From assembly GCF_032116555.1 (NCBI RefSeq), contig NZ_CP134949.1, positions 1,488,001 to 1,552,000 on the forward strand: a stretch of DNA of 64,000 bases, given 5' to 3'. This DNA comes from Halobaculum sp. XH14. GTDB lineage: Archaea > Halobacteriota > Halobacteria > Halobacteriales > Haloferacaceae. The notes under the pieces were generated by a model that was given only the letters and a program-made list of their open reading frames with translations, searched no databases and was not told the origin of the DNA. Shown piece after piece: positions 41,402 through 46,551 of this stretch (position 1 is its first letter; the number at the start of each line of letters is the position of its first letter). Both the position numbers and the translations under genes were made by a program.

Positions 41402-41485
41402 GGTGGGATGGCAGAGTGGCCCATTGCGCCTGCCTTGAAAGCAGGTAGCCTCACGGCTTCCTGGGTTCGAATCCCAGTCCCACCG
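41402..41485 (+). tRNA. tRNA-Ser (TGA)
   Basis: A class II tRNA. The acceptor stem GGTGGGA (41402-41408) pairs with TCCCACC (41478-41484), with discriminator G41485. The anticodon stem CCTGC/GCAGG closes loop CTTGAAA with anticodon TGA for UCA codons. The long variable arm includes AGCCTCACGGCT. The T arm is CTGGG-TTCGAAT-CCCAG. A T-rich ATTTTAC follows shortly after. Confidence 0.95.
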
Positions 41486-41837
41486 CGACATTTTACGCTG
41501 CGTTCGCCGCGGCGAGCCGCGGCTCTCTCGGTAAACTGTCGATTAAAAGCACTCCTCACTCCCGTCGCTCGCTCCGCTCGCTCGCTCTCGGAGGGGCGCG
41601 TGGTGCGACCGCACCGTTGCTGCCGTGGCGCGCGGCCGCTCGCGCGAGGGACGAGCACCGCAGCGAACGAGCGGAGTGTGCGAGCACGAGGAGCGCAGCG
41701 GCCGCACCGAGTCGACAGCCGCGGGGGCTTTCGAGCAGTTGCCGTCGATGGATGCTGACACACATCCAGCCGACCCAGAGCATCGGACCCATCCCGCAAC
41801 GCCCAAACGCCCACCCCATCAACCACTGACCAAGAAG
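41486..41837. other. intergenic region after tRNA-Ser with inverted repeats
   Basis: This 352-base gap precedes rqcH. It contains CGCTCGCTCCGCTCGCTCG near 41565-41585 and partly complementary GAACGAGCGGAGTGTGCGAG near 41664-41684. The open frame across it has no resemblance to a protein. The rqcH promoter must lie in its right part, but no strong TATA is visible. Confidence 0.4.
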
Positions 41838-43967
41838 ATGGAGCCGAAACGCGAGATGACGTCGGTCGACCTCACCGCCCTGGTCGGGGAACTCGGGCGC
41901 TACGAGGGCGCGAAGGTCGACAAGGTCTACCTCTACGGCGACGACCTCGTGCGGTTCAAGCTGCGCGACTTCGACCGCGGGCGCGTCGAACTCCTCGTCG
42001 AGACGGGCGAGGTGAAGCGCTGCCACGTCGCGGACCCCGCCCACGTTCCCGACGCGCCCGGCCGACCGCCGGAGTTCGCAAAGACCCTCCGGGCCCGCAT
42101 CGGCGGCGGCGAGTTCGCCGGCGTCGAGCAGTACGAGTTCGACCGCATCCTCACCTTCGAGTTCGAGCGCCCGGACGAGGACACGTTCGTCGCCGCCGAA
42201 CTGTTCGGGCAGGGGAACGTCGCCGTGCTCGATGAAACCAGGGAAGTCCAGCGGAGCCTGGAGACCGTCCGGCTGAAGTCCCGGACCATCGCGCCGGGGA
42301 GCCAGTACGAGTACCCGCAGTCGCGGCTCCACCCGCTGAACGTCGACTTCGAGCCGTTCAGGGCACGGATGGACGAATCCGACACCGACATCGTCCGGAC
42401 GCTGGCGACCCAGCTCAACTTCGGCGGCCTCTACGCCGAGGAGGTCTGCACCCGCGCGGGCGTCGAGAAGGGCACGCCGATCGACGAGGCGACCGAGGAG
42501 CAGTACCGGGCCGTCCACGACGCCATCGTCCGCTTCCGCGAACGGCTCGATTCGGGCGATCTCGACCCTCGCGTCTATCTGGATGACGGGGAGGTGGTCG
42601 ACGTGACGCCGCTCCCGCTGGAGGAGCACGAGGGACTGGAGAGCGAGGCGTACGACGACTTCAACGCCGCGCTCGACGCGTACTTCCACCGCCTCGACCT
42701 CACGGAGGACGAGGGGATCGACGACTCGCCCGACTTCGAGGCCGAGATCGAGAAGAAGCGGCGAATCATCGACCAGCAGGAGGGCGCCATAGCGGAGTTC
42801 GAGGAGCAGGCCGAGGCCGAGCGCGAGCGCGCCGAACTCGTCTACGCCCACTACGACCTCGTGGACGACGTGCTCTCGACGGTGCAGGCGGCCCGGGAGG
42901 AGGGTCGTCCCTGGGAGGAGATCGAGGCGACGTTCGCCGAGGGGGCCGACCGCGGCATCCCCGAGGCCGAGGCCGTCGAGGACGTGAACGGCGCCGAGGG
43001 GACGGTCCGCCTCTCGCTCGGGGAGGCGTCGGTCACGCTGGACGCGCTCACGGGGCCGGAGAAGAACGCGGACCGGCTCTATCAGGAGGCAAAGCGCATC
43101 GAGGGGAAGAAGGAGGGCGCGGAGGCGGCGATCGAGAACACCCGCGAGGAGCTCGCGGAGGTACGAGCGCGCAAGGAGGCCTGGGAGGCGGCGGACGAGG
43201 AGCAGGGTGCGCCGGGGGACGGTGCCGAGTCGGACGCGGATGGCGAGGCGGACGACGACGGGGAGGAGCCGGACGTCGACTGGCTCTCCCGGCCCTCGGT
43301 CCCGATCCGCCAGCAGGACCACTGGTACGACCGGTTCAGGTGGCTCCAGACGAGCGACGGCTTCCTGGTCATCGGCGGCCGGAACGCCGACCAGAACGAG
43401 GAACTCGTGAAGAAGTACATGGACGCCGACGACCTGTTCCTCCACGCGCAGGCCCACGGCGGGCCGGTCACGGTCATCAAGGCGACGGACCCGTCCGAAC
43501 CCGCACGGGACGTCACCATCCCCGAGCAGTCGCGCGAGGAGGCCGCCCAGTTCGCCGTCTCGTACTCCTCGGTGTGGAAGGACGGCCGCGGGGCGGGCGA
43601 CGCCTACCTCGTGACGCCCGAGCAGGTGTCCAAGACGCCCGAGTCGGGCGAGTACGTCGAGAAGGGCGGGTTCGTCATCCGCGGCGACCGGGAGTACTAC
43701 CGCGACGTCCCCGCCTCGGTGTCGGTCGGCGTGCAGGCCGAGCCGGAGACGCGCGTCGTCGGCGGGCCCACCTCGGCCATCGAGGACCGCGCGGAGACGA
43801 CCATCAAACTCCGGCCGGGCAAGTTCGCGCAAAACGACGCGGCCGTGAAGTGCTATCGGGAGTTCAAGCGACGCTTCGCCGACGACTCGTTCGTCCGGAA
43901 GATCGCCTCCGCCGACCGGATTCAGGAGTTCCTCCCGCCGGGCGGGAGCGACCTGCTGGGGGTCTGA
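41838..43967 (+). CDS. rqcH: ribosome quality control protein RqcH (NEMF/Rqc2 homologue)
   Basis: A 709-residue NFACT protein that binds split 50S subunits carrying stalled peptidyl-tRNA and adds C-terminal alanine tails. The NFACT-N domain begins MTSVDLTALVGELGRYEGAKVDKVYLY; a helix-hairpin-helix and a long coiled coil (about 300-455, charged Glu/Arg) follow; the NFACT-R domain has DRFRWLQTSDGFLVIGGRNADQNE and KYMDADDLFLHAQAHGGPV. ATG 41838 or the ATG at 41856 are both possible. It is followed after one base by a DUF4013-like gene and further by pelA, placing two rescue factors together. Confidence 0.93.
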   Translation: MEPKREMTSVDLTALVGELGRYEGAKVDKVYLYGDDLVRFKLRDFDRGRVELLVETGEVKRCHVADPAHVPDAPGRPPEFAKTLRARIGGGEFAGVEQYEFDRILTFEFERPDEDTFVAAELFGQGNVAVLDETREVQRSLETVRLKSRTIAPGSQYEYPQSRLHPLNVDFEPFRARMDESDTDIVRTLATQLNFGGLYAEEVCTRAGVEKGTPIDEATEEQYRAVHDAIVRFRERLDSGDLDPRVYLDDGEVVDVTPLPLEEHEGLESEAYDDFNAALDAYFHRLDLTEDEGIDDSPDFEAEIEKKRRIIDQQEGAIAEFEEQAEAERERAELVYAHYDLVDDVLSTVQAAREEGRPWEEIEATFAEGADRGIPEAEAVEDVNGAEGTVRLSLGEASVTLDALTGPEKNADRLYQEAKRIEGKKEGAEAAIENTREELAEVRARKEAWEAADEEQGAPGDGAESDADGEADDDGEEPDVDWLSRPSVPIRQQDHWYDRFRWLQTSDGFLVIGGRNADQNEELVKKYMDADDLFLHAQAHGGPVTVIKATDPSEPARDVTIPEQSREEAAQFAVSYSSVWKDGRGAGDAYLVTPEQVSKTPESGEYVEKGGFVIRGDREYYRDVPASVSVGVQAEPETRVVGGPTSAIEDRAETTIKLRPGKFAQNDAAVKCYREFKRRFADDSFVRKIASADRIQEFLPPGGSDLLGV

Positions 43968-43968
43968 G

Positions 43969-44721
43969 ATGCTACAGGAGGCGCTGGCGTTCCCGTTCCG
44001 TGGCGACCGCGGCGACGCGCTCGAGACGCTCGCGATCGGCGGCGGGCTCCACCTGCTCGCCGCGTTCGTTCCCCTCCTCCCGCTCGTCCCGGTGGTCGGC
44101 TACCTCGTCGGGCTGTTGCGAGCGGATGGCGGTGGCGTCGGTGGAAACCGGGCCGATGGCGGCGGCGACGACGCTGCCGATCCGAGCGGAGGTGTCAGCG
44201 ACGACGGTGAGGCCGTCGCCGAGGGTGGCCCCCACGGCCACGGTGTCGAGCTCCCGCTGTTCAGGGGGCCGAGGCGACTGCTCCGGGACGGGCTGTTCGG
44301 GTCGCTCGTCTGTCTCGCCTACCTCGTTCCGCCGGTCGCGTTCCTCCTGCTGACGGTCGGCCGCGCCGCGATCGAGGGGGTTCCCGCCGACGTCCCGTCA
44401 CGCCTGTTCGTCGTCGCCAGCACGCTCTCGCTGCTGCTCGCCGCCACGTTCGCGTACGTGCTGCCGGCGGCGCTCGTGGGGCTCGCACGCTCGGGGCTAC
44501 GGGCCGCCTTCGACCCGCGGGGGCTGTGGGGAACGGTGACCGACGGCCGGTACTTCTACGCGTGGAGCGTGGGGGCTGTGACGATCGGGTCGGCCGTCGC
44601 GCTGGCCCAGCCGCTCAACCGGATCGCCCTGGGATTCTTCGTCCTGTTCTACGCCGAGGTCGTCGCGGCGCGGGCGATCGCCGACGGCGTGCGGGGAAAC
44701 GGTTTTACATCGGCTCGGTGA
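43969..44721 (+). CDS. DUF4013-like membrane protein
   Basis: A 250-residue protein with five or six membrane helices. The start MLQEALAFPFRGDRGDALETLAIGG is like the MLEESLRYPLESDDSIATLLIG start of the next gene, showing they are distant paralogues. A Gly/Asp-rich cytosolic loop (about 50-90) is inserted in this copy. It is one base after rqcH and ten bases before the next DUF4013 gene, so it is surely in their operon. The function of DUF4013 is unknown. Confidence 0.7.
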   Translation: MLQEALAFPFRGDRGDALETLAIGGGLHLLAAFVPLLPLVPVVGYLVGLLRADGGGVGGNRADGGGDDAADPSGGVSDDGEAVAEGGPHGHGVELPLFRGPRRLLRDGLFGSLVCLAYLVPPVAFLLLTVGRAAIEGVPADVPSRLFVVASTLSLLLAATFAYVLPAALVGLARSGLRAAFDPRGLWGTVTDGRYFYAWSVGAVTIGSAVALAQPLNRIALGFFVLFYAEVVAARAIADGVRGNGFTSAR

Positions 44722-44731
44722 CCCATCACGC

Positions 44732-45448
44732 ATGCTGGAAGAATCACTGCGCTACCCGCTGGAGAGCGACGACAGCATCGCCACGCTGCTCATCGGCGCG
44801 CTGCTCACCGTTCTGAGTATCCTCATCATCCCGGCGTTCATCGTCCAGGGCTATCTCGTCCGCGTCCTGCGCTCGTCGGTCGCCGGCGAGACGGAAGCGC
44901 CGTCGTTCACCGACTGGGGTGACCTGTTCGTCGACGGCCTCAAACTGTTCCTCATCAACCTCGTGTTCGGCATCATCGTCGCCATCCCGTTCGTCATCGT
45001 GACCGTGGTGTTCCTCGGCGGCGCGTTCGCGGCCGGCGACGCCGGAGGCGGATCCGGTGCCGCGGCGCTGGGCCTGCTGAGTCTGCTGCTGTTCGCGGTC
45101 GTCGGCCTGCTGGCGCTCGTGCTCGCGTACTTCCTCCCGGCGATGTTCGCGAACTTCGCCGTGGAAGGTCGCCTCGGCGCGGCGTTCGACCTCTCGACCG
45201 TGCGCGCGGTCGCGTTCACCTCGGAGTACTTCGTGGCCGTCCTGCTGGGCGTCGTGGCCGGTGCCGTTCTCAACTCGGTCGGCGGGACGCTCGCGTTCAT
45301 CCTCGTCGGCCTGCCGATCCTGTTCTACGGGCAGGTCGTCACCTACTACCTGTTCGGCCGGGGCTACGCCGAGGGACGGACCGCCTCCGGGCTCTCGCCC
45401 GCGCCCGGGTCGACGGCGACGACGACCGACCGCTCCGGCGGCGTCTGA
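44732..45448 (+). CDS. DUF4013 membrane protein
   Basis: A 238-residue membrane protein with five or six helices. DUF4013 hallmarks are the start LRYPLESDDSIATLLIGALLTVL, the PAFIVQGYLVRVLRSS segment after the first helix and the glycine-rich LPAMFANFAVEGRLGAAFD. It has a disordered Thr/Ser tail. It lies between the RqcH-linked paralogue and pelA. It may bring rescue factors or nascent membrane proteins together at the membrane, but this is speculation from position. Confidence 0.8.
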   Translation: MLEESLRYPLESDDSIATLLIGALLTVLSILIIPAFIVQGYLVRVLRSSVAGETEAPSFTDWGDLFVDGLKLFLINLVFGIIVAIPFVIVTVVFLGGAFAAGDAGGGSGAAALGLLSLLLFAVVGLLALVLAYFLPAMFANFAVEGRLGAAFDLSTVRAVAFTSEYFVAVLLGVVAGAVLNSVGGTLAFILVGLPILFYGQVVTYYLFGRGYAEGRTASGLSPAPGSTATTTDRSGGV

Positions 45449-45483
45449 GAAGGCCTTAGTAGCCGGGTCGCCCATCCCCCTCC

Positions 45484-46551
45484 ATGCGAATCGAAGGCCG
45501 CGGTCGCGGCGCGGAGGGCCGCGAGCGGCTCACGGTCGTCCCGGAGACGACCGACGACCTCTGGCACCTCTCGCACGTCCTGGAGCCCGGCGACCGCGTG
45601 GAGGCCGACACGACACGGCGCGTCCAGCGGGACGACGAGAACCTCCGTGACACCGGCGGCGAGCGCGAGCACATGCACGTCACCATCGAGGTCGAGGACG
45701 TCGAGTTCGCGCGCTTCGCCAACCGGCTCCGGGTCGGCGGCGTCATCGTCGGCTGCTCTCGCGAGGACCAGCTGGGCCACCACCACACGATCAACGTCGA
45801 GGAGCGCTCGGAACTCACCGTCGAGAAGCAGTTCAAGCCCGACCAGATCGAACGCATCGAGGAGGCCGAGGAGGCGACCGACGCGCCCGACGTCGCCATC
45901 GCCACCGTCGAGGAGGGGGCCGCGTACATCCACACCGTCCAGCAGTACGGTACGGAGGAGTACGCCAGCTTCACGAAACCGACCGGGAAGGGCGAGTACG
46001 CCCGCCCCCGCGAGGAGCTGTTCGGCGAACTCGGCGACGCGCTCGCACACGTCGACTCGGACGCGATCATCCTCGCCGGCCCAGGGTTCACGAAGAACGA
46101 CGCGCGGGACCACGTCACGGAGCAACACCGCGAACTCGCCGACCGCATCACCGTCGTCGACACGTCGGCCGCGGGGGACCGCGGGGTCCACGAAGTGTTG
46201 AAGCGCGGGGCGGTCGCGGACGTCCAGCGCGAGACCCGAATCGCCCGCGAGGCGGAGCTCATCGACCGGCTGACCGAACACATTGCGGAGGGCGCGAAGG
46301 CGACCTACGGCGTCGCTGAGACGATGGAGGCCGCCGAGTTCGGCGCGGTCGAGACGCTGCTCGTCCTCGACGAGCGGCTCCGGCAGGAACGACAGGGCGA
46401 GGGCGACTGGGACGTCGACGCGAACGAACTCATCGAGTCCGTCGAACGGAAGGGCGGCGACGTGGTCGTCTTCTCGGCTGAGTTCGCGCCGGGCCAGCAG
46501 CTCCGGAACCTCGGCGGCGTCGCCGCGCTGCTCCGATATCGGCTGCAGTGA
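45484..46551 (+). CDS. pelA: mRNA surveillance/ribosome rescue protein Pelota
   Basis: A 355-residue Pelota (Dom34), an eRF1 relative that enters the empty A site of stalled ribosomes and, with ABCE1, splits them. Domain 1 (about 1-130, Sm-like) begins with [22 protein letters not shown]; domain 2 has [20 protein letters not shown], and domain 3 has [11 protein letters not shown]. No GGQ motif is present, as expected for Pelota. It lies 35 bases after a DUF4013 gene; that gap holds TTAGTAG, which might be a weak internal promoter. Confidence 0.95.

What the first reader, a model, noticed from the sequence alone, without database searches (positions are those of the whole stretch)
41838..46551. 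RqcH and Pelota encoded together with two DUF4013 membrane proteins
Two separate stalled-ribosome factors, rqcH and pelA, flank two distantly related DUF4013 membrane proteins, all on one strand with gaps of 1, 10 and 35 bases. RqcH acts on split 50S subunits and Pelota splits stalled ribosomes, so linkage is meaningful. The conserved-looking position of the membrane proteins suggests that rescue could be tied to the membrane in haloarchaea, for example for stalled membrane-protein synthesis. The role of DUF4013 is unknown.
Basis: partly seen in the sequence, partly recalled or inferred. Interest (0 to 1): 0.6.

Follow-up and report, generated by a model that had tools for sequence, protein, structure and literature searches.

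The report
Membrane genes between two ribosome-rescue genes
In many salt-loving archaea, genes for a membrane protein of unknown function lie between two neighbouring genes that rescue stalled ribosomes; the arrangement is real and old, but the promoter signals suggest the genes are mostly switched on separately, so a shared job is possible but not shown.

Summary
Confirmed: rqcH (41838-43967), two DUF4013 membrane genes (43969-44721, 44732-45448) and pelA (45484-46551) lie on one strand with gaps of 1, 10 and 35 bp, and all pass curated family cut-offs. The arrangement is far beyond chance. In 97 haloarchaeal genomes (43 genera) DUF4013 lies between rqcH and pelA, or beside whichever one it stayed with after a split, in 50 genomes, 20 genera and 7 families, always on the same strand (75/75). 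In DUF4013-bearing methanogens of the same phylum rqcH and pelA are directly adjacent (51/55, gaps 5-126 bp) and DUF4013 lies elsewhere. DUF4013 was therefore inserted into an ancient rescue gene pair early in haloarchaea and duplicated there. The operon reading fails for pelA. It carries a conserved promoter-like box (AGnGCACTTACC, start -34) whether or not DUF4013 precedes it, and DUF4013-B also has a promoter-like box. Only DUF4013-A is tightly coupled to rqcH. Other neighbours (elp3, a metallo-beta-lactamase gene) are almost as well conserved, and half the genera lack DUF4013 there. DUF4013-B is a confident six-helix model with no solved structural relative. Best reading: an ancestral gene-order block, with functional coupling to ribosome rescue possible but unproven.

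The parts
41402..41486 (+). tRNA-Ser(TGA), upstream neighbour, not part of the unit
   Evidence: ARAGORN and Rfam RF00005
41838..43967 (+). rqcH (archaeal RqcH/NEMF family, NFACT_N + NFACT-R)
   Evidence: NF041120 816 bits, PF05833, PF05670; one copy in each of 116 haloarchaeal genomes
43969..44721 (+). DUF4013-A, 250-aa membrane protein with a disordered loop at about 56-92; starts 1 bp after the rqcH stop, no promoter-like box
   Evidence: PF13197 55.6 bits; AF2 pLDDT 84, same helix order as B; 0-2 bp gap kept in the genus and in Halobaculum
44693..44709 (+). promoter-like box of DUF4013-B (GGGGAAACGGTTTTACA; TTTTAC at -29 to -24), inside the 3' end of DUF4013-A
   Evidence: present in all three genomes of the genus, with GAAACCGTTAACC-type boxes in Halobaculum; weak class-wide support, p=0.037
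44732..45448 (+). DUF4013-B, 238-aa six-helix membrane protein
   Evidence: PF13197 123.8 bits; AF2 pLDDT 91, pTM 0.86; all 15 loci found with its alignment in the GTDB genomes lie beside rqcH
45449..45460 (+). pelA promoter-like box (GAAGGCCTTAGT, start -35), weak PWM match but in the conserved place and identical in all three genomes of the genus
45484..46551 (+). pelA (Pelota/Dom34)
   Evidence: TIGR00111 299 bits, eRF1_1/2/3 domains

Best explanation
This is an inherited haloarchaeal gene-order block. rqcH and pelA are an ancient neighbouring pair in the phylum. Early in haloarchaeal evolution a DUF4013 membrane-protein gene came to lie between them, then duplicated locally, moved with either partner when the pair was split, and was lost in other lineages. 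RqcH and Pelota carry out ribosome rescue in the cytosol as in other archaea (inferred from family). pelA, and probably DUF4013-B, are transcribed from their own boxes; DUF4013-A is read from the rqcH message, starting 1 bp after its stop (inferred from sequence). The DUF4013 proteins are six-helix membrane proteins, probably with conserved loops on the cytoplasmic face (inferred). They most likely do a general membrane task that is not a required step of rescue; in this genus DUF4013-A is made in step with RqcH.
For: Same-strand DUF4013 between or beside rqcH/pelA in 50 of 97 genomes, 20 of 43 genera, 7 families. In methanogens rqcH-pelA are adjacent in 51/55, median gap 29 bp, with the nearest listed DUF4013 at least 18 kb away. 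One DUF4013 clade (24 rows, support 96/80) is 23/24 locus-resident over six families and includes window copy A; copy B sits in an 8-row, all-locus clade (99/82). A PWM trained only on pelA genes not preceded by DUF4013 finds the box before pelA genes that are (6.2 versus -2.2 and -0.9 bits; per-genus p=1.6e-4; 13/15 genera at -32 to -35). AT peaks at -28 to -25 occur before rqcH and pelA, none before DUF4013 genes 10 bp or less after rqcH. elp3 and a metallo-beta-lactamase gene are conserved neighbours too (15 genera each). Off-locus DUF4013 genes sit in another conserved context beside a NUDIX-like gene.
Against: DUF4013 is the most conserved neighbour, while the other genes found in the interval are confined to a few genera, which suggests selection for the position. 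When the pair split, DUF4013 stayed with pelA or rqcH in several genera. The DUF4013-to-pelA gap is shorter than other-gene-to-pelA gaps (median 62 versus 190 bp). Promoter boxes are inferred from sequence, with no transcript data.
Confidence: 0.6

Rival explanations
1. Membrane-linked rescue: DUF4013 is a membrane partner of RqcH/Pelota that handles ribosomes stalled while making membrane proteins, for example by docking the split 50S-nascent chain or taking over the stalled hydrophobic chain.
For: Conserved position and strand over 7 families; a largely locus-restricted clade; DUF4013 stays with either partner after independent splits; DUF4013-A is tightly coupled to rqcH in the window genus, Halobaculum and genus g17; arginines in DUF4013-B lie in or next to loops on one face of the model.
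Against: rqcH and pelA are in all 116 genomes but 21 of these had no significant DUF4013 match; methanogens keep DUF4013 elsewhere; pelA has its own promoter box; no solved structural relative, so no insertase resemblance was found.
Confidence: 0.2
2. Co-regulation only: DUF4013 and rqcH are expressed together as parts of one stress response (salt, cold, membrane damage) without physical interaction.
For: rqcH and DUF4013-A are 0-2 bp apart with no box between them in genera g1, g9 and g17.
Against: In most other genera the rqcH-to-DUF4013 gap is 37-366 bp, so co-transcription is not general.
Confidence: 0.15
3. Chance neighbours in this genome.
For: None found beyond the generality of small gaps in dense genomes.
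Against: 20 of 43 genera against about 0.16 expected under random placement; 75/75 same strand; tree clustering of locus copies, 0 of 500 shuffles as low.
Confidence: 0.01

Closest known systems
rqcH-pelA gene pair of methanogens in the same phylum
   Same: Same two rescue genes, same order and strand, one copy each
   Different: Directly adjacent, 5-126 bp apart, with no membrane gene between; haloarchaea hold 0-3 DUF4013 genes there and pelA has its own promoter-like box
DUF4013 (PF13197)
   Same: Both window membrane proteins are members by the curated cut-off
   Different: Elsewhere the family occurs in tandem arrays in methanogens and in other haloarchaeal contexts; no function or solved structure is known
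Bacterial RqcH/RqcP quality control (B. subtilis; PMC8373112, PMC8012679)
   Same: RqcH homologue acting on split large subunits
   Different: Splitting in archaea is expected to use Pelota/ABCE1; the authors of PMC8373112 say that an RqcP analogue could exist undiscovered in archaea; DUF4013 is a membrane protein and does not resemble a small RNA-binding RqcP
DUF7544 (PF24400) haloarchaeal membrane proteins
   Same: One of 27 DUF4013 members gives a weak Pfam match, E=0.004
   Different: Profile-profile comparison only 7% probability: relation not established

Membership tests
RqcH/NEMF (NF041120) | NFACT-N and NFACT-R domains, score over curated cut-off | tested here: met
   816 bits versus 400; PF05833 and PF05670 over cut-off
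RqcH/NEMF (NF041120) | tRNA-Ala binding and C-terminal tailing activity | not testable with these tools
   needs biochemistry
Pelota/Dom34 (TIGR00111) | three-domain eRF1-like protein over curated cut-off | tested here: met
   299 bits versus 177.65; eRF1_1, eRF1_2, eRF1_3
Pelota/Dom34 (TIGR00111) | lacks the GGQ release motif of eRF1 | tested here: met
   no GGQ in the translation P0004, by inspection
DUF4013 (PF13197) | score over gathering cut-off 26.9 bits | tested here: met
   A 55.6, B 123.8 bits
DUF4013 (PF13197) | six-helix membrane fold shared by A and B | tested here: met
   AF2 models with the same helix order, pLDDT 91 and 84
Single rqcH-DUF4013-pelA operon | all four genes on one transcript, no internal promoters | tested here: not met
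   conserved promoter-like box before pelA independent of DUF4013, and a box before DUF4013-B; sequence evidence only
Obligate rescue-system component | DUF4013 co-occurs with rqcH/pelA | tested here: not met
   rqcH and pelA in 116/116 haloarchaeal genomes, DUF4013 in 95/116 and at the locus in 50/97
Known membrane insertase or transporter folds | structural or profile similarity to a solved protein | tested here: not met
   no PDB fold match at E<=0.001, no confident sequence match

The most novel reading that the evidence does not exclude
DUF4013 is a haloarchaeal membrane partner of ribosome-associated quality control that works with RqcH/Pelota on stalled membrane-protein synthesis, with a fold not seen in any solved structure.
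Probability: 0.15. Interest if true: 0.75.

Novelty: new variant of a known kind. Interest (0 to 1): 0.42.

Why it matters
Partners of archaeal RqcH are largely unknown. A membrane protein that has stayed beside rqcH/pelA across seven haloarchaeal families, including species of the tractable genus Haloferax, is a concrete candidate to test. The analysis also shows that a 35-bp gap in haloarchaea can hold a leaderless promoter, so short gaps should not be read as operons.

Tried and rejected
Chance neighbours: rejected by the survey. Operon read from short gaps: rejected for pelA by the train/test promoter analysis. DUF4013 as a GPDPase_memb or DUF7544 relative: no window-genome match to PF10110 and only 7% hhalign probability for DUF7544. 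Fold search against PDB and viral models: no match. Literature on DUF4013 or on an archaeal rqcH-pelA link: nothing useful in the held library. A broad DUF4013 alignment had no conserved stretch to search with; a narrower one worked. One Pfam scan failed on wrong coordinates and was repeated.

Full report
Observation. Each passes its family's curated cut-off. The two membrane proteins are 28% identical and are 2 of only 3 DUF4013 matches in the genome. Both other genomes of the genus keep the same order, and dN/dS values of 0.19-0.43 show that the DUF4013 genes are under purifying selection.

Survey. In 116 haloarchaeal genomes (46 genera) every genome has one rqcH and one pelA, and 95 have a DUF4013 match. 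In 77 of 116 rqcH precedes pelA on the same strand within 10 kb. I fetched the loci of 97 genomes (43 genera) and scanned them in six frames with a DUF4013 profile. DUF4013 lies between the two genes, or within 1 kb 3' of rqcH or 5' of pelA where the pair is split, in 50 genomes, 20 genera and 7 families; all 75 such copies are on the same strand. A crude random-placement null expects about 0.16 genera; related genera are not independent, so the p-value should not be taken literally. A search for DUF4013-B relatives in the named GTDB genomes gave 15 loci (Haloferax, Halobaculum, Halogeometricum, Halalkalicoccus and one MAG), all beside rqcH and 14 with pelA as well.

Origin. In 55 genomes of the same phylum outside the haloarchaea that carry DUF4013, rqcH and pelA are directly adjacent in 51 (gaps 5-126 bp), and no listed DUF4013 gene is within 18 kb (neighbourhoods). 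The rescue pair is therefore older than the insertion. In the tree, one haloarchaeal clade of 24 rows is 23/24 locus-resident over six families and includes window copy A; copy B is in a clade of 8, all locus-resident. A third clade mixes locus and off-locus copies. The simplest history is early insertion, local duplication, and several moves and losses; support is moderate and some branches are long.

Transcription. The 50 bases before pelA carry a box at a fixed distance in nearly all genera, whatever precedes pelA. A weight matrix trained on 34 genera in which pelA is not preceded by DUF4013 (consensus AGnGCACTTACC, start mostly -34) was tested on pelA genes that are. Mean scores were 6.2 bits against -2.2 and -0.9 in control windows; per-genus p was 1.6e-4; 25 of 39 loci exceeded the 95th percentile of the controls, and 13 of 15 genera had the best match at -32 to -35. 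The window's own match is weak by score but lies in the right place and is identical in all three genomes of the genus. AT content peaks at -28 to -25 before rqcH and before pelA in both classes, and not before DUF4013 genes that start within 10 bp of rqcH. DUF4013-B of the window genus has GAAACNGTTTTAC at the corresponding place. This spacing is what is expected of leaderless haloarchaeal promoters (established knowledge; no transcript data were available). So pelA, and probably DUF4013-B, are started separately, and only DUF4013-A looks coupled to rqcH.

Controls that lower the claim. elp3 upstream of rqcH and a metallo-beta-lactamase gene downstream of pelA on the opposite strand are kept in 15 genera and 6 families each, with only 2-4 kb of flank read. 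A set of off-locus DUF4013 genes also has a conserved context (NUDIX-like gene, DUF4013, a conserved unknown gene). Conserved position alone therefore does not prove a shared function. Against that, DUF4013 is the best-conserved neighbour and other genes found in the interval are confined to few genera.

The protein. AlphaFold2 gives a confident model for B (pLDDT 91, pTM 0.86) with two short and four long helices, and the same helix order for A with a disordered loop. No solved structure matches. Arginines sit in or next to the 2-3 and 4-5 loops and the C-terminus, which suggests that these face the cytoplasm (inference). There is no literature on DUF4013 in the held library.

Verdict.

Noticed in passing
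window 45449-45460; upstream of pelA in loci L004-L100: Conserved pelA promoter-like box AGnGCACTTACC about 34 bp before the start codon across haloarchaeal families; missing in genus g15, where rqcH and pelA overlap by 1 bp.
   Followed up: yes
L152, L162, L164, L165, L166: Off-locus DUF4013 genes from different tree clades occupy one conserved place between a NUDIX-like gene and a conserved unknown gene, with a small conserved gene on the opposite strand.
   Followed up: partly
L108:1670-3388 and 15 genera: An Elp3-type (radical SAM + GNAT) gene lies upstream of rqcH on the same strand in 15 genera: a possible wider translation neighbourhood.
   Followed up: partly
L030:1263-1991 and 15 genera: A metallo-beta-lactamase-fold gene lies downstream of pelA on the opposite strand in 15 genera.
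   Followed up: partly
L077 (G043:C23), start of pelA: pelA is truncated next to CTGTCTCTTATACACATC followed by Ns, which looks like a sequencing-adapter remnant, so this pelA is probably broken by assembly.
   Followed up: no
methanogen loci L167-L175 and the listings: In methanogens DUF4013 often occurs as tandem arrays of 2-5 copies away from rqcH/pelA.
   Followed up: no
family f4 loci L055-L073: In this family the rqcH-pelA interval is filled with unrelated, often opposite-strand genes, including a four-helix protein of about 200 aa in 11 interval loci of 5 genera.
   Followed up: no
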